A stretch of 39,929 bases of DNA from a virus. Within the stretch, counting starts at the first letter, position 1, and each line of letters starts with the position of its first letter. The translations under genes were made by a program, and so were the position numbers. Positions 3,116 through 31,720 of the stretch are shown here, piece by piece. The DNA lies in IMG/VR virus record IMGVR_UViG_3300013104_000046, positions 1 to 39,929 of that record; one strand, given 5' to 3'. The notes beneath the pieces were generated by a model, which did not search any database, was not told the DNA's origin, and saw only the letters and a program-made list of their open reading frames with translations.

Positions 3116-3906
3116 AACGGGATGTCGTCGTCGGGGTTCTTCTCGACCGGCTCGCCTTCCGTTGACTCGAAGGCCGAGCAGAGCTGCCCCAGCGTGTCGG
3201 TCGTGTCCTTTTCGAGGCCCTGCTTGGCGCGCTGCTGCTGCTCGGCGTTGAGGCGCGCGCAGACGAAGCGCGAGAGCCGTTCGGCGGGGGCCTGCTCAAG
3301 ACCAGCGTGTTCACAGAGGTTCCGCATCGTCGTCACGTCCACTGGCTGCGGATCCGCTGGCGGCGTGGTCGGCGGCTCGGGCTCAGCCTGCGTGTCTGGC
3401 GCCGATGCCTTGGCCCTTTCGCCGGCGGCGTTCACATCAGCCTCGAACCAGTCGGTCCACTCGGTGATCGCAGCTTTCAGTTCCTCGGCCGAGCCGGTCT
3501 TGGCCTCCGACGAGCCGAGCTGCAGGGCCTCGAGCGCCATATCCTGCGCGTGCGCCCGGCCCATGCGGGCGACCTTCTCGGGGTCGAATTGCGACTCGGG
3601 CTTGAAGGACCGGCCGCCGCTGCGACTGCCGCCGCCAGCTCCCCCACCTCCGCCGCCGGGGGATTCCTTCTTGAAGATCGGGCCGTAATCCCCGTTGCTG
3701 ATCGTGCCGAAGTAAGTCTCACCGACCTCAACCGTCGCTGGCATTTTCCGGCGCCAGTACACATCGTCGCAGCCATCGAAATCGACGTAAAACTTCTTGA
3801 GCGTTCCCCCTTTCTGACCGGGTTCTTCCTTGCCCTCGCGGACGGAGAGGACTTTCCACTCCTGCTGTTTAGGGAGCCCGGGGACCGGCTCGCGCTGGCC
3901 GCTCAT
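3112..3906 (-). CDS. Single-stranded-DNA-binding-like protein with SSB-type tail
   Basis: This protein has 264 residues. The start ATG overlaps the upstream stop (ATGA at 3903-3906). The first 65 residues (EWKVLSVREGKEE, then LKKFYVDFDG and VGETYFGTISNG) have a strand-rich, OB-fold-like pattern. A Gly-rich segment follows, then a helical region. The protein ends exactly in NPDDDIPF. An acidic DDDIPF tip is the signature of bacterial SSB proteins, which use it to dock replication and repair partners. The N-terminal part is not obviously the classic SSB domain and the protein is longer than usual (SSB is about 160-180 residues), so it may be a phage-specific ssDNA-binding family that has adopted the tail. 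Confidence 0.65.
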   Translation of the reverse strand: MSGQREPVPGLPKQQEWKVLSVREGKEEPGQKGGTLKKFYVDFDGCDDVYWRRKMPATVEVGETYFGTISNGDYGPIFKKESPGGGGGGAGGGSRSGGRSFKPESQFDPEKVARMGRAHAQDMALEALQLGSSEAKTGSAEELKAAITEWTDWFEADVNAAGERAKASAPDTQAEPEPPTTPPADPQPVDVTTMRNLCEHAGLEQAPAERLSRFVCARLNAEQQQRAKQGLEKDTTDTLGQLCSAFESTEGEPVEKNPDDDIPF

Positions 3907-4601
3907 CGGACCTGCACCCGTTTGTCGCGGAACGGTTCGACGCCGGGGATCACAATCCCCTGCCGCACGTCGGCGAGGATCTTGCTGCGCCGCGGCACCC
4001 GTTCGACGTACTCGTCGGGCAACGCATCCTCGTCGGTAATCCGATACTTGAGTTCGGTCGTCGGCGAGGACTTTGCTCCGCTGGCGCCGCGTGCGCCGGT
4101 CGGTTCTTTCCGGGGTGGCGGGGCGGCAACGTGGTGGGCCTGCCGACCTTCGGACGCAGCGGCGGCGTTCTCCTCTTCTTGCTTCCGCCGTGCCTCGGCT
4201 TCCTCGCGCTCGCGCCGCTCGCACTCAGCTCGTTCTTTCTGCTCCTCGTAGGCGAGGAACCGGGCTTCGAGGGATTCCTTGCGGGCTTCGAGCGGTGAGG
4301 CCAGCTCCTTGAAGGCAGCCTGGACGCGCTTGCCAGCGTCGTCGAAGGGCTTTTTGAGGCCCTTGCGGGCCGTCTCCCCGTCTGCGATCGCGTTGCGCAG
4401 GGCGGCGAGGGCGTCGGTGGCTTCGCTGGCGGCCTCCTGGTCGTCGATGTCCCCGGTGATCCGGTCGGCCTGCTCGATTGCTTTGCGCGTTGCCTCGTCA
4501 ACCCGCTGGAAGTCCTCGTGCTCGCGAACGTCGATGTCGACGTCGAGCGGTGCCGGCCCTTCGGGCTCGGGCGTATCAATGTCCTGTCTGCGCAGCCTCA
4601 C
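3903..4601 (-). CDS. Coiled-coil protein, Gp157-like C-terminus
   Basis: This protein has 232 residues. The GTG start overlaps the upstream stop (GTGA) and is preceded by a strong ribosome site AGGAGGGG. Residues about 30-150 form a long charged coiled coil rich in Glu, Arg and Ala. The C-terminus (LPDEYVERVPRRSKILADVR, then IPGVEP..KRVQVR) resembles the end of phage Gp157 and related recombination-cluster proteins, where a Lys-rich helix is followed by a G-x-x-IPG-V hairpin. Such proteins usually sit beside SSB and recombinase genes, as here. The exact role is unknown. Confidence 0.6.
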   Translation of the reverse strand: MRLRRQDIDTPEPEGPAPLDVDIDVREHEDFQRVDEATRKAIEQADRITGDIDDQEAASEATDALAALRNAIADGETARKGLKKPFDDAGKRVQAAFKELASPLEARKESLEARFLAYEEQKERAECERREREEAEARRKQEEENAAAASEGRQAHHVAAPPPRKEPTGARGASGAKSSPTTELKYRITDEDALPDEYVERVPRRSKILADVRQGIVIPGVEPFRDKRVQVR

Positions 4602-5929: not shown

Positions 5930-6134
5930 TTGCACCCACGCCCCCCCCCTCAGATTCCGGGCATCGCTCGCGGCGGTCATGGTGAGTTCGACAGTCGGGA
6001 CACGCCATGTAGCTCGCCTTCACCGGGCCGCAGAGCGCTTTCCACCGACGCTCTTCGGTACGGCGTGCCCGGCGTAGCTGCTCGCGTCGCTCCGGCGAAA
6101 GATCGGTCGTGGTGGTTGGGCGCCCCTCGCTCAC
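5919..6134 (-). CDS. Small basic protein with Cys/His cluster
   Basis: This protein has 71 residues. The GTG start overlaps the DnaB stop (GTGA). A basic helix (LSPERREQLRRARRTEERRW) is followed by CPDCRTHHDRRERCPE, probably metal-binding. The C-terminal codons SEGGG are written by a run of nine G (complement of 5941-5949), which could be slippery. Function unknown. Confidence 0.55.
   Translation of the reverse strand: MSEGRPTTTTDLSPERREQLRRARRTEERRWKALCGPVKASYMACPDCRTHHDRRERCPESEGGGVGANDG
5941..5949 (-). repeat. Poly-G run (9) inside the small basic gene
   Basis: Nine C on the top strand. The coding strand reads GAATCTGAG and then G, giving residues SEGGG. A very similar context with ten G occurs at 10790-10799 in the sigma-like gene. 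Such runs are prone to polymerase slippage or assembly error. Confidence 0.7.
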
Positions 6135-7453
6135 GGGAAAAGTCCCTCGTCCTCGATGAGTGCGGAGCTGCCGACGTAGCCGGGTAGATCTTCGGCGCGG
6201 CCATCGACCATCGGCGTGAAGCGCAGCCGGTCTTCCTTGAAGTAGACCTCCATGCCGCCGGTCGGGCCGTTGCGGACCTTCGTGAAGTAGATCGCGCCCT
6301 GCGGTTCGCGGTCGCCCGTCTCGGAGTCCTGCTCGCGGTGGACGAAGCACACGATGTCGGCGTCGTTCTTGATCGACCCGGAGCCGCGCAGGTCGCCTTC
6401 GGTCGGCCGGGGGCGGACGACGCCCGTCACCCGCTTCTCGTTCAGGTGGGCAGTCGAGAGGACAACGCAGTTGGCCTGCACGGCGGTGCGAGCGAAGGTG
6501 GCGGTAATCGCCGACAGGTCCCGCTCGTCTTCGTACTCGATCAGGTGCATGATGTCCACGGCGGCGACGTCGTAGGCGTTGCGGCGAATGTGATGGGCAA
6601 TGTCCGTCGCCGACCAGCCGGCGGCGAGGGTGATCCCGAAGGGGAAGGTGTCGGCTTCGTTGAGCGCCCGGTTGGCGATGATCTGCTGCTCCTGAGTCAG
6701 CTCACCGCGGACGATCTTCGAGAACGGGATGCCCGTCTTCCGGGTCAGGGTGCGAGCGACCCGTTGCTGCGCAGACATCTCGTTCATGTAGAGGCGGGTT
6801 CGCAGACCGGCCTTGTGGAGCCCGATTAGCGACTGGTCAAGGAACTGCGACTTGCCGTGCGAGCTGTGGCCGCCGATCACGATGAACTCACCGCGGCGCA
6901 TTCCGCCGGAAGTCAGGTCGTTCAGCCGCTTGAAGGGCCAGGGGAATGCCTCGGCCCCCCCGTGTTCGAGCAGTTCGTGGGCGATGTCGCGGAGGTCGTC
7001 GGGCTCGAGGTCGGAAGCCTCGCGCGTGAAGTCGGCTTGCAGCATCGCCTCGGCGGCGGTCAGCGCGTCCTCGTCGCGCTCGGTGACCGCAAGCTGGATC
7101 TTCTGGCCGGCGGCGAGGCGATTAGCCCACAGAGCCTCGCGGACGATCGTCTGTGCGTAGGTCGGGGCGTTGCCAGGAGCCGGGCATGAGGCCAAGAGGT
7201 CGGCCGCCGTGTGCTCACCAACCTCCTCGAGCAGGTTGCGCTCGCGCAGCTCGGCGTTAATCGTCGTCGGGTCGATCGCCTTGTCGTCGTCGTGCAGCGC
7301 GACGATCGTGGCGAAGAGCTTGCCGTGGCGCTCGTAGTAGAAGTGCTCAGGCTTCAAGCCGGTGTCGACCAGGACCCCGGCGATGTAGCGCGGTCCGGCA
7401 ATCAGGGCGCCGAGCAGGTTGCGCTCCGCGTCGATGTCACAGGGCACGCTCAC
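6131..7453 (-). CDS. dnaB: Replicative DNA helicase, DnaB family
   Basis: This protein has 440 residues, close to the usual DnaB length. The GTG start overlaps the initiator stop (GTGA). The N-terminal domain begins with the typical DIDAERNLLGALIAGP. The RecA-like domain holds Walker A GGHSSHGKS (194-202), Walker B ending VAAVD300, sensor STAHLN (333-338) and the arginine-finger region DLRGSGSIKNDADIV (354-368). The usual Gln of the sensor motif is His336. It unwinds DNA at the phage replication fork. Position directly after the initiator-like gene fits helicase loading by that protein. Family assignment is certain; the symbol denotes the family. Confidence 0.95.
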   Translation of the reverse strand: MSVPCDIDAERNLLGALIAGPRYIAGVLVDTGLKPEHFYYERHGKLFATIVALHDDDKAIDPTTINAELRERNLLEEVGEHTAADLLASCPAPGNAPTYAQTIVREALWANRLAAGQKIQLAVTERDEDALTAAEAMLQADFTREASDLEPDDLRDIAHELLEHGGAEAFPWPFKRLNDLTSGGMRRGEFIVIGGHSSHGKSQFLDQSLIGLHKAGLRTRLYMNEMSAQQRVARTLTRKTGIPFSKIVRGELTQEQQIIANRALNEADTFPFGITLAAGWSATDIAHHIRRNAYDVAAVDIMHLIEYEDERDLSAITATFARTAVQANCVVLSTAHLNEKRVTGVVRPRPTEGDLRGSGSIKNDADIVCFVHREQDSETGDREPQGAIYFTKVRNGPTGGMEVYFKEDRLRFTPMVDGRAEDLPGYVGSSALIEDEGLFP

Positions 7454-8286
7454 GTCGTCACCGGCTTGTCGAGGAACGTCTTGAAGCCGCCGTTTTTGCC
7501 GGCGGCCTTCCGGGCCAGTTCGATGTAGCGCTCGAACTTCGAGGCACGCAGGATCGTCTCGGGTCGATCGAAGCTCTGTTCGCGCAGGCGCTCGTCGCCG
7601 TGGCAGCCGACCGTCGCTTCCATCAGTTCCTCAACTGTCCGGCCGTCCTCGCGGCGGGCTTTGAAGGCCCGCTTGGCCTCTTCGCTGCCTTCGACCGCCG
7701 TGCGACCCGTCGTCTCGTGGTAGTGGGCGAGCCAGCGGTCCCAATCGACGCGGAGCTGCGCTTTGGTCAGAGCCCCCTTCGTCTCTGTCTCTCCATGCCC
7801 TCCTGAGCCCTGGCCTTGGCCCTGTCCCTGGCCCTGCAACCCATCGGTGGGTTGAGCATAGGGTATGGATAGGGTTTCGATTTCGGCCTCGGCAAGCCAC
7901 TTGCTCACCCAGCTTTTGCCGAGGTACTCGGTCAAGAAAGCAGCCCGTAGCGGATGCTCGACCGGGACTCGTTCGACGTCGCGGACGACGCCCGTCGCCA
8001 TCTTCGAGCCCTTCGTGCGCAGGTGCTTGACCCGGCTGCGCACCCACAGCCAGCCGTCCACATAGCGCAGGTAGCCGGCCTCTTCCAGCTCCTTGATCGC
8101 GTCGGCCCGGCGCTTCGCCGTCATGCGCCCCTCGACGATCGATCGGCGTTTGACCCGGTAGATCCCCGACATGCCGCAGCGCGAGTTGGTGAAGCTCCAC
8201 AGGTAGATCAGCGCGGCGTCGTCGCCCAGGTCGTCGAAGTCCTCGTCCTCCCATAGAGCCGTGCTGACGTCCTCGAGCCTGCTCAC
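7450..8286 (-). CDS. Replication initiator / replisome organiser-like protein
   Basis: This protein has 278 residues. The GTG start overlaps the preceding micro-gene (GTGA). Residues about 20-100 look like a winged-helix DNA-binding domain (ALIYLWSFTNSRCGMSGIYR, then ADAIKELEEAGYLRYVDGWL), as in phage replisome organisers. A repetitive Gly-Gln linker (GQGQGQGQG, about 151-159) joins it to a C-terminal helical domain (RTAVEGSEEAKRAFKARRED onward) like the DnaD-type or phage C-terminal domains that load helicase. It lies directly before dnaB, the expected order. Its binding site (origin) is not identified; it may be inside this gene or in the 0.5-0.8 kb control region. Confidence 0.75.
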   Translation of the reverse strand: MSRLEDVSTALWEDEDFDDLGDDAALIYLWSFTNSRCGMSGIYRVKRRSIVEGRMTAKRRADAIKELEEAGYLRYVDGWLWVRSRVKHLRTKGSKMATGVVRDVERVPVEHPLRAAFLTEYLGKSWVSKWLAEAEIETLSIPYAQPTDGLQGQGQGQGQGSGGHGETETKGALTKAQLRVDWDRWLAHYHETTGRTAVEGSEEAKRAFKARREDGRTVEELMEATVGCHGDERLREQSFDRPETILRASKFERYIELARKAAGKNGGFKTFLDKPVTT

Positions 8287-8453
8287 CGCTGGACCCGGCG
8301 CATCGGCGCCTCCTCGATTGGCCGGCGGATCAGGTTGCAGGGCGTCCCGGCTCGCTGGCCGGTCTTCTCCTGGTCGAGTTCACGACGAGGAGGCTGCCGG
8401 TCGCTGCTGCTGTCGCTGCCGGTCCTCTTCGGGGTTGATCGGGACGCGCTCAC
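8283..8453 (-). CDS. Arg-rich microprotein (56 residues)
   Basis: This frame is short but is tied in at both ends: its GTG start overlaps the stop of the gene before it (GTGA at 8450-8453), and its TGA overlaps the GTG of the initiator gene (8283-8286). The product is polar and basic (SASRSTPKRTGSDSSSDRQP at its start) and ends PIEEAPMRRVQR. No family is recognised. The double NTGA coupling is the main support. Confidence 0.5.
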   Translation of the reverse strand: MSASRSTPKRTGSDSSSDRQPPRRELDQEKTGQRAGTPCNLIRRPIEEAPMRRVQR

Positions 8454-8671
8454 AGTTCACCTCTCCGCGCGCGGACCTGCCGCTCGCGCCGCGGCACGGG
8501 ATCGGCGACGTGGTACTTGCCGCAGTCCGCGCAGGTGTAGACGACGCCTCGGGGCAGCGCGGCGCGAGCTTCACCCGGCTGAGCGAAGCCGCGCTTGCCG
8601 CTCGGGCATTCCCGTTTCCGGTCGGTGCGCTTGACCCACTTGCGCGGGTGCTTCTTGCGACGCCGGCTCAC
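8450..8671 (-). CDS. Small basic zinc-binding-like protein
   Basis: This protein has 73 residues. The GTG start overlaps the stop of the 32-residue micro-gene. The N-terminus is a highly basic tail (SRRRKKHPRKWVKRTDRKRE) and the middle holds CADCGKYHV, a half zinc ribbon completed perhaps by the earlier Cys. A nucleic-acid-binding role is likely; partner unknown. Confidence 0.55.
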   Translation of the reverse strand: MSRRRKKHPRKWVKRTDRKRECPSGKRGFAQPGEARAALPRGVVYTCADCGKYHVADPVPRRERQVRARRGEL

Positions 8672-8766
8672 AGGATGCCCCCGGCGACGTGGATAACACC
8701 AGCCCAGAAGAGGACGTCGACCTCGAAGGCGAAGAGCAACCAGCACCATTCGCAGAAGCCGCTCAC
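8668..8766 (-). CDS. 32-residue hydrophobic micro-gene
   Basis: The GTG at 8764-8766 opens a frame of 32 codons whose TGA overlaps the next GTG (GTGA at 8668-8671). The product begins SGFCEWCWLLFAFEVDVLFW and is aromatic and hydrophobic to its end, as expected for a single membrane helix. It would be the first gene of the operon part left of attP. Coupling and hydrophobicity support it; there is no strong ribosome site. Confidence 0.4.
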   Translation of the reverse strand: MSGFCEWCWLLFAFEVDVLFWAGVIHVAGGIL

Positions 8767-8824
8767 CTGGCCGCGACTCCGAACAGATCCCGAACACCGA
8801 TCTGCGTAGTGGTGGCGACCCGCG

Positions 8825-8852
8825 GGCGGCGAGGGCCAGAAGGCCCCCGCCG
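8825..8852 (-). terminator. Hairpin between integrase and replication genes
   Basis: GGCGG..GGGCC-AGA-AGGCCC..CCGCC forms a strong interrupted stem on either strand. It lies downstream of integrase and attP in the leftward direction and might reduce read-through from the integrase side into the replication genes. There is no T run. Confidence 0.35.
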
Positions 8853-8911
8853 ATTCCCCGCATTGAAGCCGAATGCTTGGCCTACATTAGCCCTGGTTGC
8901 CGAGCACCCTA

Positions 8912-8955
8912 CATTCGTAATGAAGGGGTCCCCGGTTCGAGTCCGGGCGTCGGCT
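8912..8955 (+). other. attP core: 3' half of tRNA-Thr (CGT)
   Basis: From the anticodon loop TTCGTAA (8914-8920) the sequence follows a tRNA: stem TGAAG, variable GGGTC, T arm CCCGG-TTCGAGT-CCGGG, 3' acceptor strand CGTCGGC and discriminator T at 8955. The 5' half (acceptor GCCGACG and D arm) is missing, and the 5' anticodon stem is already imperfect (CTACA against TGAAG). A tRNA 3' half beside an integrase gene is the classic phage attachment site; integration would restore a whole host tRNA-Thr. CCTACATT occurs at 8881-8888 and again at 8908-8915, a direct repeat at the core boundary. Confidence 0.85.
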
Positions 8956-9006
8956 TCGCATTCCAGAGCGGTGCCCGAACAGGAGTCTTGCGCTACGCGC
9001 GCTCCG

Positions 9007-9027
9007 GCCCGAACGCCGCCCGAACAC
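9007..9027 (+). repeat. 21-bp direct repeat, copy beside the integrase stop
   Basis: Identical to 462-482. It ends 1 base before the stop codon complement of the integrase (9029-9031). Confidence 0.6.
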
Positions 9028-9028
9028 A

Positions 9029-10216
9029 TCACGCCGTCGCTACCTCCCTCGCCACCGGCGCGATGCCCCGCGCCTCGCGGATGTAGTCGTCGATCGACCG
9101 GCGTTCCTGCTCCGGCCTCGGTGCCGCGTCGATCATGTGGCGGTAGACGCCGTTCACTACATCGGTCCCGTTGCCGAGTTGGTGGGCGATCTCGTCCGCG
9201 GTCCAGCCAGCGTTCGCCGCAAGCGTGGCGAAGGTGTGCCGCAGGTCGTAGGGCTTCAAGTTGGCTCCGAGCCCCAGGTCTTCGGCGGCGCGCTTGAAGC
9301 AGCTCGGCCGACGCTTCGTCCCGTCTTTGCCCTTGCGCGGATGGCGCGACCGCCAGTTGTCGTAGTTCGATTTCGACCAGGGCTGGCCGTCGCCGACGCG
9401 GCCGAAGACGAAGACGCTGGCGCTGTGGGGGCGCCATAGCTCGAGGTCTTCGGCGGCAGCCTCAGCGACGAAGACCCGGCGGTTGTGGTGCTCGCCGGTC
9501 TTTGAGCCGGGCAGGATCTTCCCGTCCACGTTCTTCGTCGTCACTGATAGCTCATGAGCGAGCGCGACGCCGGCCGGGCGGGTGCTGAGGTCGGTCCAGA
9601 GCCGCGCGAGCGTGTCCTGTGGGCGGATCCCGACGTACGCCTGCATGGAGACCAGCGTCGCCGAGCCAATGTCGTCTCGTTCGAGGTACCACATGCGGAT
9701 CGCCTCGACCTCCTCGGCGATCAGCCAGCGGTGAGGCTTCTTCTTGTAGCCAGGCGGGTCGAGGAAGGCAACCGGGTTGTCGTCGAGGTATTCGTAGGGC
9801 AGCACGGCCTTCTTGAGGATCAGGCTGAGAACCACCTGGGTCTTGCCGATCGAGGACGGTCCGGCGCCGGCCTCGAGGCGTTCGGTCTGCCAGTCCTGCA
9901 GGCGAGACGGCCGCAGGTCGACGAGGGGTAGGTGGCCGATGAAGGGGAAGACCTGCGCTTCGAGCAGCTGGGCGTAGCCAGCCAGCGTCGTGTCTTCGAG
10001 GTGCGTCATCGCGGCGAGCCGTTCGATCGAGAAGGCCTCGAGGGTCGGGACGTCCTTGCGCCGCATGACCGGCTTGCCCTCGGCGAGGCGCCGGTCGATC
10101 CGTTCCTGCTCGCGTTCTGCCTCGCCTACCGTCTTCCGGGTCAGGGATTTCGGCCTGCCGTTCTCGCGCCACCGCAGTTCGTGGGTGCCGTAGCGCGTCT
10201 CGTGGATGGAGCTCAT
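9029..10216 (-). CDS. int: Tyrosine integrase
   Basis: This protein has 395 residues. ATG 10214-10216 has a GAGAGGAG ribosome site and overlaps the excisionase stop (ATGA). The N-terminal arm-binding region (residues 1-60) carries the TRYGTHELRWRENGR strand pattern, followed by a SAM-like core-binding domain (about 65-155). In the catalytic domain I see Arg198 (GIRPQD), Lys239, Arg326 (YDLRHTFATL), His345 and the nucleophile Tyr358 (VYRH). The box II His before xxR is Tyr323 and the usual LGH is LGN349; these variants occur in active phage integrases but deserve note. It catalyses integration at tRNA-Thr and, with the excisionase, excision. attP lies just past its stop. Confidence 0.95.
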   Translation of the reverse strand: MSSIHETRYGTHELRWRENGRPKSLTRKTVGEAEREQERIDRRLAEGKPVMRRKDVPTLEAFSIERLAAMTHLEDTTLAGYAQLLEAQVFPFIGHLPLVDLRPSRLQDWQTERLEAGAGPSSIGKTQVVLSLILKKAVLPYEYLDDNPVAFLDPPGYKKKPHRWLIAEEVEAIRMWYLERDDIGSATLVSMQAYVGIRPQDTLARLWTDLSTRPAGVALAHELSVTTKNVDGKILPGSKTGEHHNRRVFVAEAAAEDLELWRPHSASVFVFGRVGDGQPWSKSNYDNWRSRHPRKGKDGTKRRPSCFKRAAEDLGLGANLKPYDLRHTFATLAANAGWTADEIAHQLGNGTDVVNGVYRHMIDAAPRPEQERRSIDDYIREARGIAPVAREVATA

Positions 10217-10503
10217 ACGTGCGTCTCCTCTCGTAGTTGGTGAACTGCCGAGAGGACGCTACCCCGCCGCCGCGAAGCGCGCCGGGGCTTGGGCATCGGA
10301 TTGGCGGCGGGTTCCTGCTTCTTGGGGACGTGGCCGGCTCGAACCCACGCGGCCAGGTCCCTCCGCGTCGTCGCCCACCGCCCCCGGCGCTTGCGGAAGG
10401 GGCTGTCGCCCCCCTCCTGCGCGATCCGATAGAGCGAGGACGGCGACCAGGGCGTGATCGCTGCGGCCTCGGCGATGCTCAGGATCTCGTCGCCATCCTT
10501 CAC
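10213..10503 (-). CDS. xis: Excisionase / AlpA-like HTH protein
   Basis: This protein has 96 residues. The GTG start at 10503 overlaps the stop of the membrane gene (GTGA), and its stop overlaps the integrase ATG. Residues 4-58 form a MerR-like winged helix (ILSIAEAAAITPWSPSSLYR, then RWATTRRDLAAWVRAG), as in AlpA/HTH_17 excisionases. The C-terminal 35 residues are a basic tail. It most likely bends attP or attL/attR to direct excision. It could instead be a regulator of the same fold. Confidence 0.75.
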   Translation of the reverse strand: MKDGDEILSIAEAAAITPWSPSSLYRIAQEGGDSPFRKRRGRWATTRRDLAAWVRAGHVPKKQEPAANPMPKPRRASRRRGSVLSAVHQLREETHV

Positions 10504-10739
10504 TGCTCTTGCTCCTGGTCGTAGATGGTCGGCTTGTGTCGGTCCCGTCGGTCCCGCCGCACATGCGCCGCGAACCTGACGGCCATCACGGTGAAGTTCG
10601 CGACCACCAGCACCAACAATCCGAACTGATCGACGAGCACGCCGCCGAGTAGAGCGGCCGACGAAGACAGCGCTATGCGCTCGTCGTACCGCTCGAACCA
10701 CCGCTCGAAGCGACTGTGCTTTTCCGAGTGCTCGGTCAC
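10500..10739 (-). CDS. Small membrane protein
   Basis: This protein has 79 residues. The GTG start overlaps the sigma-like gene stop (GTGA). A charged N-terminal helix (about 1-23) precedes a hydrophobic stretch (about 24-56, ALLGGVLVDQFGLLVLVVAN) long enough for one or two membrane helices, and the end is basic. It is located between a regulator and the excisionase, away from the lysis genes, so a superinfection-exclusion or early membrane role is more likely than a holin. That is inference. Confidence 0.6.
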   Translation of the reverse strand: MTEHSEKHSRFERWFERYDERIALSSSAALLGGVLVDQFGLLVLVVANFTVMAVRFAAHVRRDRRDRHKPTIYDQEQEQ

Positions 10740-11761
10740 GCGCTCACCACGGCTCCGAGAGCGCCGGTACGGGGATCATGCTGGGAAAGCCCCCCCCCCT
10801 CTGATTTCAGGGCGCTGCGCAGCCGAGTCGTCAGCTTCGTCGGCTCGGGCTGCCTCACGTCGATTGGCCCGAGGATCGCTTCGCAACCCGCCTGGACCCG
10901 CTGCGGGGTTGCCCCGCCGAAGTAGCGGATCATCGTCTCGTAGGAAGGGAGCGATCCCGGTGGCAGGTCGATCGCGTCAGCGCGGCCGGGCCAGAACCCT
11001 TCCCTCCTGCGGAAGGCGTAACACGTCTCGGCCGCTTCGAGCGCGGTCCAGCGCTTGCGGTAGGTCGGCCGTTCGATCGGCACCCCCGCTTCGAGCAGGA
11101 GATCGTTCAGGTTCTCCCACCCGAGACGCTTCACCGTCTCCATCGTGGGCATCCCCTTCGCCGCCCTGAGGTCGGTGCTTGCGGGCGCTTTGCCCGTGTG
11201 GTCGCGCCACCGCTGAACGACGCCGATCACCTGCAACCGTTCCCACGGCTGGCCCGGGCCCGGGGGCGGGGTGAAGCGCGCGTCCTCGTCAACGCCCGCC
11301 CTGGTGTAGGCGACCACCGGCGAAATCTCGCCCTTCGTATCCGACCCTTCGCGCTCCGGGTCGGCATCGCTCTTGGGATCGACGCTCAGGTCGAGCGAGA
11401 GCATTTTCGGTCCGCGCTGGTCGCGGATCTTCATCAGCCGCTTTCGGGCGTAGTTGCTCACGATGCCGAGGATCGACCACGGATCCTCGGCGAAGAGCTC
11501 AGGGTGCTTCACCCATAGGACCGCGAAGGTGTCCTGAATAGCGTCTTCCGCCTCGTAGATGTTGGTGGCAGCGACGATGCCGACGAGCTGTTCGGCCATG
11601 CGTTGCAGCTCGGAGGCGGTGAAGCTGGCCCACGCCTGCCTCACTACCTCCGGCGTTGACCGATGCTGCGGGCGGGGCTTCTCAAGTCCAACCGCAAGGT
11701 CGAAGTCCACCCCCTCGACCTCGGCGACTTCCGAAAAGGCTGCGGAGAAGGTCTGTGCCAT
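10736..11761 (-). CDS. Sigma-region-2-like protein fused to homing-endonuclease-type repeats
   Basis: This protein has 341 residues. The start ATG directly abuts the stop of the gene before it. Residues 71-111 (AEDAIQDTFAVLWVKHPELF, then PWSILGIVSNYARKRL) match region 2 of sigma-70/ECF factors, which binds core RNA polymerase and the -10 element. There is no normal region 4. Instead residues about 176-227 and 240-300 look like two homing-endonuclease-associated repeats (G-x-x-P..D..MPTMETVKRLGWENLNDLL; LPSYETMIRYFGG), which bind DNA as small helical units. Ten consecutive G encode part of the C-terminal tail. It may redirect host polymerase to phage promoters. It could also be an inactive sigma homologue used as a DNA-binding adaptor. 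Confidence 0.6.
   Translation of the reverse strand: MAQTFSAAFSEVAEVEGVDFDLAVGLEKPRPQHRSTPEVVRQAWASFTASELQRMAEQLVGIVAATNIYEAEDAIQDTFAVLWVKHPELFAEDPWSILGIVSNYARKRLMKIRDQRGPKMLSLDLSVDPKSDADPEREGSDTKGEISPVVAYTRAGVDEDARFTPPPGPGQPWERLQVIGVVQRWRDHTGKAPASTDLRAAKGMPTMETVKRLGWENLNDLLLEAGVPIERPTYRKRWTALEAAETCYAFRRREGFWPGRADAIDLPPGSLPSYETMIRYFGGATPQRVQAGCEAILGPIDVRQPEPTKLTTRLRSALKSEGGGLSQHDPRTGALGAVVSA
10790..10799 (-). repeat. Poly-G run (10) inside the sigma-like gene
   Basis: Ten C on the top strand, read as SEGGGL near the C-terminus of the sigma-like protein. The flank on the coding strand (GAAATCAGAG) resembles that of the run at 5941-5949 (GGAATCTGAG). Confidence 0.7.
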
Positions 11762-12394
11762 CTAGACCCCCGCCCCGCTCAGCACGTACCCGACGCGGCC
11801 GTTGCGCCGTTCCATGCGGATCTCTTCCTCGCGGATCAACGATCCCGCCTGGCTCTCGATGAGAGCCGGGTCCTCGTCAAGCAGGTCAGCAAGCTCGTCG
11901 ACAGTGGCGAACTCGCAGGATTGAATCGTTGCCAGCACCCGGCCCACCAACGTCCCCTGTGGGGGCGCGCTCGGCGGCGGGGCAGTCGGAGACTCCTCCG
12001 CATCGCCGGTCGGCGACTTGATGGATTCGTAGCGCGTGAACTGCCGGTCGCCCTCGCGCCGCAGCTTCCCCGCTTCGACCAACCTGCTCGCCGCCGTCCG
12101 AAACGTGTTCTCGGAGAGTCCGGTCGCGGCACGGATGTCCTTCGGCGCGACGAGTCCACCCTGCTCGGCGATGAAGCGGTGTACTTTGGCCTGTCGCGCC
12201 AATGCCTCGGCCGGCGACGTCGTCGCACCCTTGCCTTTCCGCTTTTGCCTCGGCGGGGGGCCAGCAATTGGCTTGGGCGGGGCTGCGAGGCTGCGGCCCT
12301 TGATCGCCGCCTCGGCAGCGTCTAGACGCTTGAGCCAGCCCCGAGCTTCTTGCCGCTCGGCGGCGATTGCCTCGAGCACAGCTTCCCCGGCCAT
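11762..12394 (-). CDS. Double winged-helix regulator-like protein
   Basis: This protein has 210 residues. ATG 12392-12394 shares one base with the upstream TGA (TGATG). Two helix-turn-helix domains are visible: residues about 66-120 (VHRFIAEQGGLVAPKDIRAA, TGLSENTFRTAASRL) and about 148-208 (LVGRVLATIQSCEFATVDEL, ending GRVGYVL). A Pro-rich linker separates them. This looks like a DNA-binding transcription or replication regulator. It sits directly upstream of the sigma-like gene, so the pair may act together on phage promoters. Confidence 0.65.
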   Translation of the reverse strand: MAGEAVLEAIAAERQEARGWLKRLDAAEAAIKGRSLAAPPKPIAGPPPRQKRKGKGATTSPAEALARQAKVHRFIAEQGGLVAPKDIRAATGLSENTFRTAASRLVEAGKLRREGDRQFTRYESIKSPTGDAEESPTAPPPSAPPQGTLVGRVLATIQSCEFATVDELADLLDEDPALIESQAGSLIREEEIRMERRNGRVGYVLSGAGV

Positions 12395-12933
12395 CAGGAC
12401 CCACTCCGGCCGATCGGCGCCCTGACATCAGCGGCGGCCGCGGGGTCGATGGGCGCGAAGATCTCGGTGGGCTTGGCGAGACCCGCGTTGCGGCGGCGAT
12501 CATCGGCGCGGGCGTTCAGGCGACGGAGCAGACGACAGGTGACGCTGTAGTTGGTCAGCGCCCCCTCAAGGTCGTCCCACAGGCCGCGTACGGCGTCGTC
12601 GACCACTCCCAGGTCTTCGGCCCGGAAGCGCTCTGACACCCACACCCTGACTTGTTCGATCGGCAGCAGTTCCTCCCGCAGCGTGTACGTGCCGGGGATC
12701 GACCGCGCCGTCGACCAGCCCAACTGGTCGAGCAGGGCCACCATGACAGCGGTGTGCTTCGCGGCTCCCTCGACCCTTCTTGGGTGGGCCGGGTCGCGCT
12801 CGGACGCTTCTTCGCCGGCGGTGCCGATAACCGAAAGCGCGTGGCGGACGAGACTGTCTCGCTCGTCGTTCCTGATCTCAAAAGTGCCTGGCTCGCCGCT
12901 ACTGCCCGGCGGAGCCACCTGTGGCTTGTCCAT
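12394..12933 (-). CDS. First gene of the leftward early operon, function unknown
   Basis: This protein has 179 residues. ATG 12931-12933 has a good GAGGAG ribosome site 5-6 bases upstream; longer open frames reach into the control region and are unlikely. The protein is acidic and helical (DERDSLVRHALSVIGTAGEE, then RVEGAAKHTAVMVALLDQLG). I recognise no family. As the gene next to the divergent repressor it holds the place of Cro- or N-like functions in other temperate phages, but no helix-turn-helix is evident. Confidence 0.65.
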   Translation of the reverse strand: MDKPQVAPPGSSGEPGTFEIRNDERDSLVRHALSVIGTAGEEASERDPAHPRRVEGAAKHTAVMVALLDQLGWSTARSIPGTYTLREELLPIEQVRVWVSERFRAEDLGVVDDAVRGLWDDLEGALTNYSVTCRLLRRLNARADDRRRNAGLAKPTEIFAPIDPAAAADVRAPIGRSGS

Positions 12934-13101
12934 CGTGTCTCCTCGCTTTGCACGAACGCTCCCTAAGCGCCGTGGGGATTTTCCCCGTTTCGTGGGCATT
13001 GACACCCATTGATGGGGAATATAGCGCAGCTCTGCACGGAATTTCCCACCCGCAGGGAAAAGGGGGTCCCTGCTGGGGGAAATCTGTGTAAGGCTCGGGC
13101 A
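12934..13101. promoter_or_regulatory. Divergent immunity control region with operator-like repeats
   Basis: This 168-base gap parts the leftward early operon and the rightward repressor. It contains the palindrome GGGGA-TTT-TCCCC (12974-12986), the palindrome TTTCCC-N7-GGGAAA (13042-13060) and single GGGGAA-type half-sites at about 13014-13019 and 13075-13081. A rightward -35 TTGACA lies at 12999-13004 with TATAGC at 13020-13025, though the 15-base spacing is short. The repeats are likely binding sites of the XRE repressor. Confidence 0.55.
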
Positions 13102-13605
13102 ATGAGACGACTGGACGCGAAGGAGGTAGCCGGCCGCATCCGGGCCTGCAGGGCCTACGCCGGCCTGACCCGGCAAGAGCTGGCCGAAAAGATGGAGACG
13201 TCTTCCTCGACGGTCGAGCGTTGGGAGAAGGCGCACCCGGGCTCCCTCGGCGGCAATGACGGAGCCCGGCGGCAGTCGATCTTGTGGGAGGTCGCCAAAG
13301 CCTGCGACCTCGACCCGGCCTGGGCGATCGGCGATTGGGACGTGCCGCCGATCTACCGGGTGCAGGAAAGGGATGTCCGGGGGATCGTCGGCCGTCTGCA
13401 GCGGATCGAACAAGCGCTGGGGCTCGAGCAGGTTCCCCAGCTTGCCGACGCCCCTACCGGCCCAATGGGGCCGCGCCCTGGCGAGCGACCGGAGGACGTT
13501 GTTGACGAGATTGAGCGGCTAACGAGTGACCCAGCCGCGCGCAAATCGCCTGCCAGCGACTCCCGGAGGGCAGGCGGTTCGCGTGGTAGAGGGCAGTCGC
13601 GGTGA
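13102..13605 (+). CDS. XRE-family repressor, probable immunity repressor
   Basis: This protein has 167 residues. I chose ATG 13102; the frame is open upstream to 13009 but that part overlaps the promoter and operators. Residues about 8-62 form a lambda-type helix-turn-helix (VAGRIRACRAYAGLTRQELA, EKMETSSSTVERWEKAHPG). Residues 75-110 look like a dimerisation helix (RVQERDVRGIVGRLQRIEQA), and the tail is Pro/Arg-rich and probably disordered. There is no peptidase (LexA-like) domain, so induction would not be by self-cleavage. Divergence from the early operon and the nearby operator repeats support the immunity role. Confidence 0.75.
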   Translation: MRRLDAKEVAGRIRACRAYAGLTRQELAEKMETSSSTVERWEKAHPGSLGGNDGARRQSILWEVAKACDLDPAWAIGDWDVPPIYRVQERDVRGIVGRLQRIEQALGLEQVPQLADAPTGPMGPRPGERPEDVVDEIERLTSDPAARKSPASDSRRAGGSRGRGQSR

Positions 13606-14914: not shown

Positions 14915-14955
14915 AAGAAGCCCCCCGGGCCTTCCAACGGCTCGGGGGGCTTCTT
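14915..14955. terminator. Strong bidirectional intrinsic terminator
   Basis: AAGAAGCCCCCCG (14915-14927) pairs with CGGGGGGCTTCTT (14943-14955), 13 bp, and extra GCC/GGC pairing is possible in the loop. TTTT follows on the top strand and TTTT on the bottom strand beyond CG. It separates the rightward regulator genes from the leftward late operon. Confidence 0.9.
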
Positions 14956-31629: not shown

Positions 31630-31682
31630 TATGTGCTCCTTTGGTCGGGTGGTGACGGTGGAGGAAGTTCGTTAACGCAGAA

Positions 31683-31714
31683 GAGCCCCGCCCCCGGCAA
31701 TGGGGACGGGGCTC
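31683..31714 (-). terminator. Hairpin after the coat gene
   Basis: GAGCCCCG (31683-31690) pairs with CGGGGCTC (31707-31714), with CCCC/GGGG inside and a short loop. TTCT follows in the leftward direction. It lies just past the coat stop and could partly stop transcription, giving more coat than tail mRNA. Confidence 0.65.
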
Positions 31715-31720
31715 GTGCCG

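What the first reader, a model, noticed from the sequence alone, without database searches (positions are those of the whole stretch)
8668..10216. attP lies inside the early operon, between integrase and replication genes
The leftward chain of coupled genes runs from 12.93 kb through the regulators, excisionase and integrase, then meets attP (8912-8955), then goes on with the micro-genes, initiator and dnaB. Integration by recombination at 8912-8955 would place integrase next to the rebuilt tRNA-Thr at one prophage end and the replication genes at the other end, cut off from the promoter near 12.95 kb. So integration itself could switch off replication genes, and excision would rejoin the operon. 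Integration-dependent control is known where attP lies inside a repressor gene; here it would act on replication and not immunity.
Basis: partly seen in the sequence, partly recalled or inferred. Interest (0 to 1): 0.72.

Follow-up and report, generated by a model that had tools for sequence, protein, structure and literature searches.

The report
attP splits integrase from replication genes
In this uncultured phage of soil-type actinobacteria the spot where it inserts into the host chromosome lies exactly between its integrase genes and its DNA-replication genes, so inserting must separate the two; whether that also switches replication off is plausible, has a precedent in the mobile element Tn916, but is not shown.

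Summary
The only gap in an eleven-gene leftward chain (12933 to 6131) is 262 nt between the integrase stop (9029) and the first micro-gene (8766). It is a lambda-type attP: a 41-bp core (8915-8955) identical to the 3' part of Thermoleophilia tRNA-Thr(CGT), flanked by paired arm sites at 8779/8790 and 9009/9020. Five viral relatives carry the same paired sites on both sides of their attP; in two prophages only the integrase-side pair is left beside int, so integration does separate what lies beyond attP. A prophage using the same tRNA-Thr shows int facing the rebuilt tRNA, as predicted.

The regulatory claim is open. For: a CI-type divergent promoter region at about 13.0 kb, no good promoter between core and 8766, and a very stable hairpin (8824-8858) on the replication side, as in Tn916's insulator terminator. 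Against: the same hairpin could block lytic read-through; close relatives G406/G407/G411 give their replication unit its own promoter plus hairpin; integrase relatives whose replication genes I could place (G001, L137, L142, L143) have them upstream of int. The window looks like an integrase-attP cassette set where its relatives keep another recombinase. New variant of a known kind; interest moderate.

The parts
13102..13605 (+). CI-like HTH regulator, divergent from the leftward early operon
   Evidence: Pfam HTH_31/HTH_3 above cut-off, PHROG transcriptional repressor
12971..13085 (.). divergent promoter/operator region: G4-ATTTT-C4 palindrome and related repeats; leftward -10 TATATT at 13023-13018, rightward TTGACA-17-TAGCGC
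   Evidence: repeats; home-made promoter scan (consensus from general knowledge)
12394..12933 (-). early gene 1, unknown
   Evidence: no family
11762..12394 (-). early gene 2, winged-helix/HTH-like, unknown
   Evidence: weak Pfam AbiEi_4/PaaX
10736..11761 (-). early gene 3, unknown
   Evidence: no family
10500..10739 (-). small early gene 4
10213..10503 (-). Xis-like HTH_17 protein
   Evidence: Pfam HTH_17 1e-5, just below cut-off; phrog_66 excisionase and regulator
9029..10216 (-). tyrosine integrase, 395 aa
   Evidence: phrog_1 4e-35; alignment with relatives, active-site motifs kept
9009..9026 (+). proximal pair of arm-type sites (CCGAACG / CCGAACA, 11 nt apart), with a single further site at 8975-8981
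8915..8955 (+). attP core, 41 bp identical to the 3' part of tRNA-Thr(CGT)
8824..8858 (-). strong hairpin CGGCGGGGGCC-TTCT-GGCCCTCGCCG between core and distal arm; perfect only on the minus strand, no T run
   Evidence: third most stable hairpin of the minus strand; fold
8779..8796 (+). distal pair of arm-type sites (CCGAACA x2, 11 nt apart)
8668..8766 (-). micro-gene 1, 32 aa
   Evidence: 4-nt overlap with the next gene
8450..8671 (-). micro-gene 2, 73 aa with Cys pairs; the homologue in G001 (54%) also follows attP
8283..8453 (-). micro-gene 3
7450..8286 (-). replication initiator / DnaD-like loader
   Evidence: phrog_1701, phrog_428; C-terminal part 49% to the G001 initiator
6131..7453 (-). 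DnaB-like helicase
   Evidence: Pfam DnaB and DnaB_C, phrog_19
3903..4601 (-). exonuclease, further along the same strand
   Evidence: phrog_10477 3e-11

Best explanation
An Xis-Int-attP cassette of the lambda type sits at the seam between the integration half and the replication half of one leftward early transcription unit that starts at a CI-controlled promoter near 13.0 kb. Integration at 8915-8955 puts int at one prophage end against the rebuilt tRNA-Thr and moves the replication genes to the other end, away from that promoter and behind a strong hairpin that would blunt transcripts coming from the host. After induction the early promoter makes Xis and Int first; excision rejoins the unit and only then is replication fully expressed. 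Shown: attP anatomy, physical separation by integration in relatives, the hairpin. Inferred: the promoter at 13.0 kb, read-through across attP in the circle, and silence of the replication genes in the prophage.
For: Unbroken, overlapping minus-strand chain with attP as its only gap. attP core and both arm pairs. Integrated relatives: L080 int facing complete tRNA-Thr(CGT); L078 and L139 keep only the int-side arm pair. Leftward promoter-like site at 13023 among the best of the minus strand, with operator-like repeats and a divergent CI-type gene; no promoter of that quality between core and 8766. Hairpin 8824-8858 is the third strongest of the strand, and the attPs of L137, L138, L140, L141 and L142 (no replication genes recognised directly behind them) have nothing like it, -14 to -17 against -28 kcal/mol. 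Working precedent: Tn916, where Porf7 reaches the replication genes only in the circle and terminator T1 insulates them when integrated (PMC11658703).
Against: The hairpin lies in the path of the proposed read-through; without partial termination or antitermination it would block lytic expression too. In close relatives G406/G407/G411 the replication unit has its own promoter just upstream of a hairpin, and the window has a weak TAATGT -10 at 8889 in similar geometry; 8% of random 145-nt stretches score as well. Repression by the CI-like protein alone could keep replication off. Only this phage has the arrangement among the integrase relatives mapped. Promoter calls rest on a home-made consensus.
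Confidence: 0.43

Rival explanations
1. The replication unit is autonomous. As in G406/G407/G411 it starts with its own promoter and a hairpin leader, here folded into the distal arm of attP, and this travels with it on integration. attP sits at the border of two transcription units because an integrase cassette replaced the recombinase found at this spot in relatives; integration has no regulatory effect of its own.
For: In G406, G407 and G411 the only TTGACN-N16-19-TAnnnT of each genome sits directly upstream of a strong hairpin and the initiator. Backbone genes of the window are about 80% identical to theirs and they keep a tyrosine recombinase upstream of initiator and DnaB in the same orientation. 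Window: -10-like TAATGT at 8889, about 30 nt, hairpin, 58 nt, gene start: similar geometry.
Against: No -35 fits the window's TAATGT; no TAnnnT follows the hairpin; the distal arm pair lies between hairpin and genes, unlike in the relatives.
Confidence: 0.35
2. The hairpin is a lambda sib-like element. Transcripts that run through int and attP carry it at their 3' side and are processed, lowering Int in the circle; integration removes it from int and allows Int to be made on induction. The regulated gene is int, not replication.
For: Position: hairpin 170-205 nt past the int stop, across the core, much like sib as I recall it; hairpin perfect only in the sense of int transcription.
Against: No such hairpin in the attPs of five relatives with the same integrase family; no evidence of RNase III processing in this host class.
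Confidence: 0.12
3. Integration does separate the replication genes but nothing is regulated by it, because CI-type repression alone controls the early region and the replication genes are also served by host read-through or by promoters inside int in either state.
For: CI-like gene and operator-like repeats; in 16 of 26 host sites examined the nearest downstream gene points at the tRNA and would read into the replication side of the prophage.
Against: The hairpin stands exactly where such read-through would enter.
Confidence: 0.1

Closest known systems
Tn916 circularisation-dependent expression with insulator T1 and antiterminator canT (PMC11658703)
   Same: Regulatory and int genes at one end, replication genes at the other, one orientation; the circle puts the main promoter upstream of the replication genes; a terminator-like hairpin between att and the replication genes.
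   Different: A phage with DnaB-type helicase genes, not a conjugative element; no antiterminator identified; the hairpin has no T run; no expression data.
Integration-dependent immunity of mycobacteriophages such as BPs (PMC9262239)
   Same: Tyrosine integrase, tRNA att site, attP inside a co-directional transcription unit, integration changes what is joined to what.
   Different: There attP lies inside the repressor gene and changes the repressor protein; here attP is intergenic, the repressor-like gene is elsewhere and an Xis-like gene is present.
Lambda pL-int-attP-sib retroregulation (from memory)
   Same: Leftward early operon running through xis, int and attP, with a hairpin just beyond attP.
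   Different: In lambda the target is int mRNA and no replication genes lie beyond attP.
State-dependent promoter switching of ICEKp1/ICEclc (PMC13023037)
   Same: Expression of a gene next to att depends on whether the element is a circle or integrated; a hairpin in the leader attenuates.
   Different: The regulated gene is int; the host tRNA promoter is used.
Phage group G406/G407/G411 (uncultured IMG/VR circular genomes)
   Same: About 80% identical terminase, capsid and portal; tyrosine recombinase upstream of initiator and DnaB in one orientation; strong hairpin ahead of the initiator.
   Different: Different recombinase, no tRNA-type attP found, canonical promoter ahead of the hairpin.

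Membership tests
Lambda-type tyrosine-integrase attP | core identical to part of a host tRNA gene | tested here: met
   41 bp, 8915-8955
Lambda-type tyrosine-integrase attP | arm-type repeats on both sides of the core, near int | tested here: met
   pairs 230 nt apart; same pairs 209-218 nt apart in L137, L138, L140, L141, L142
Lambda-type tyrosine-integrase attP | prophage relative with the predicted junction | tested here: met
   L080 int convergent with complete tRNA-Thr(CGT); L078 and L139 at other tRNAs
Tn916-type excision-dependent expression | main promoter and int on one side of att, replication genes on the other, same orientation | tested here: met
   the promoter is predicted only
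Tn916-type excision-dependent expression | terminator between att and the replication genes | tested here: inconclusive
   very stable hairpin, no T run
Tn916-type excision-dependent expression | antiterminator in the upstream part | not tested
   no search made; not recognisable by sequence alone
Tn916-type excision-dependent expression | replication genes silent when integrated, on after excision | not testable with these tools
   needs RNA data
Integration-dependent immunity (BPs type) | attP inside the repressor gene | tested here: not met
   attP intergenic; repressor-like gene at 13102-13605
Lambda sib retroregulation | RNase III-sensitive hairpin across attP acting on int mRNA | tested here: inconclusive
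   hairpin present, function unknown

The most novel reading that the evidence does not exclude
A temperate phage that makes excision a precondition of replication: attP, with an insulating hairpin nested in its own arm, cuts the early operon so that an integrated genome cannot express its initiator and helicase. Such a phage could not replicate in situ and so should not do lateral transduction.
Probability: 0.38. Interest if true: 0.75.

Novelty: new variant of a known kind. Interest (0 to 1): 0.5.

Why it matters
P22 and some staphylococcal phages replicate and package before they excise, which drives lateral transduction (PMC8575938). A genome layout that forces excision before replication would be the opposite solution, readable from sequence, and would extend the Tn916 principle from conjugative elements to phages. 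It can be tested by asking whether host DNA beside the prophage is amplified on induction.

Tried and rejected
Integrase in genome contigs with two sequences: no hit. DnaB in viral contigs: no hit. The tool's sigma-70 scan finds nothing even where a promoter must be, so its silence means nothing; I used a relaxed actinobacterial consensus instead. Rejected: a real phage tRNA-Thr gene at 8879-8957 (5' side does not pair properly); a prophage junction in the window (phage genes on both sides). tRNA-like calls in G406 and G408 were looked at as att sites and set aside: degenerate and far from the recombinase. A host read-through survey is only suggestive. Literature searches for a phage with attP between int and replication genes gave no clear precedent; the library lacks most subscription papers, so absence there is weak evidence.

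Full report
What is there. The window is a 39,929-base virus record without an end repeat, close in length to three circular relatives (G406, G407, G411; about 41-42 kb, 127-base end overlaps) whose capsid, portal and terminase are about 80-86% identical. Leftward genes run from 12933 to 9029 (six genes, the last two an Xis-like HTH protein and a tyrosine integrase) and from 8766 to 6131 (three micro-genes, a replication initiator, a DnaB helicase). Every junction inside each block is an overlap or abutment; the single gap is 262 nt (families).

The gap is attP. Bases 8915-8955 are identical to the 3' part of tRNA-Thr(CGT) of Thermoleophilia; the exact 41-mer occurs in 57 contig stretches, most of them in complete tRNA genes, and in about 17 clear cases in a partial copy without the tRNA 5' half. 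So this tRNA is an integration hot spot and the host is very probably a member of that class. The gap also holds five CCGAAC[A/G] sites, four of them as two pairs with 11-nt spacing, one pair at each edge. The motif was found in the window first and then checked in others. Viral relatives L137, L138, L140, L141 and L142, with integrases 45-58% identical, each carry GTTCGG-N5-GTTCGG (the same site on the other strand) on both sides of their attP, 209-218 nt apart, and, except for one further copy in L138, nowhere else in the stretch held. These are arm-type sites.

What integration does. In two relatives found next to host DNA (L139 in a viral contig, L078 in a bacterial genome) only one arm pair remains, beside int, and a complete tRNA follows; in L078 the DNA beyond the tRNA carries what read as host ribosomal-protein and translation-factor genes (my reading of the protein starts, not a family search). 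In L080, another bacterial genome, int is convergent with a complete tRNA-Thr(CGT), the same tRNA as in the window. So integration of this family separates int from whatever follows the distal arm. For the window that means the micro-genes, initiator and DnaB. The replication-side end of a prophage was not seen directly.

Is the arrangement typical? No. In the integrase relatives whose initiator I could place (G001, L137, L142, L143) the replication genes lie upstream of int; behind attP come small genes and then the protein that sits next to the large terminase in the window. None of seven viral relatives tested gives a DnaB match. The DnaB-bearing module belongs to the G406 group, which has another tyrosine recombinase in the same place, upstream of initiator and DnaB. 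The window looks like that backbone with the recombinase exchanged for an Xis-Int-attP cassette. A co-directional gene starting just behind the distal arm is, however, usual in this integrase family.

Regulation. A relaxed promoter scan finds a leftward site at 13023 among the best of the minus strand, in a divergent region with operator-like repeats next to a CI-type HTH gene. Between core and 8766 only a weak TAATGT (8889) appears; 8% of random stretches do as well. On the replication side of the core stands a hairpin, 8824-8858, third most stable on the minus strand; several of the other top hairpins lie between genes or at operon ends. It has no T run, so terminator activity is uncertain. 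The attPs of L137, L138, L140, L141 and L142 lack such a hairpin. In G406/G407/G411 the replication unit has a conserved TTGAC-18-TAGGnT promoter, the only match to that pattern in each genome, followed by a hairpin (in G407 with a T run), then the initiator.

Reading. That makes the proposal sensible. The relatives with their own replication promoter make autonomy nearly as likely. I put excision-gated expression at 0.43 and autonomy at 0.35. The topology is established; the switch is a hypothesis with a clear test.

Noticed in passing
L137, L138, L140, L141, L142, L143 (viral), L139 (prophage end): These relatives carry the 5' half of a tRNA (Gly-CCC in four, others in L142 and L143) behind int, so integration would replace the promoter side of the host tRNA, and the host tRNA promoter would read into the phage genes at the other end: the opposite polarity to the window.
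   Followed up: partly
L005-L061: tRNA-Thr(CGT) of Thermoleophilia is an integration hot spot: about 17 of 59 exact core copies are partial (att scars) that share the core from TCGTAA on; a Gaiella genome (G009) has a stretch of about 8 kb between a complete tRNA beside an integrase and a partial core copy.
   Followed up: partly
G406 33038, G407 17304, G411 17974: Conserved promoter plus hairpin leader ahead of the replication initiator; looks like attenuation or antitermination control of phage replication.
   Followed up: partly
1863-1936: Phage-borne tRNA-Met (CAT) on the minus strand.
   Followed up: no
8450-8671: Small Cys-pair protein conserved (54%) directly behind attP in both the window and G001, although the rest of the neighbourhood differs.
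   Followed up: no
1816-1851, 14917-14953, 31680-31718: Very strong hairpins between genes, mostly without long T runs: probably the terminators of this phage.
   Followed up: no
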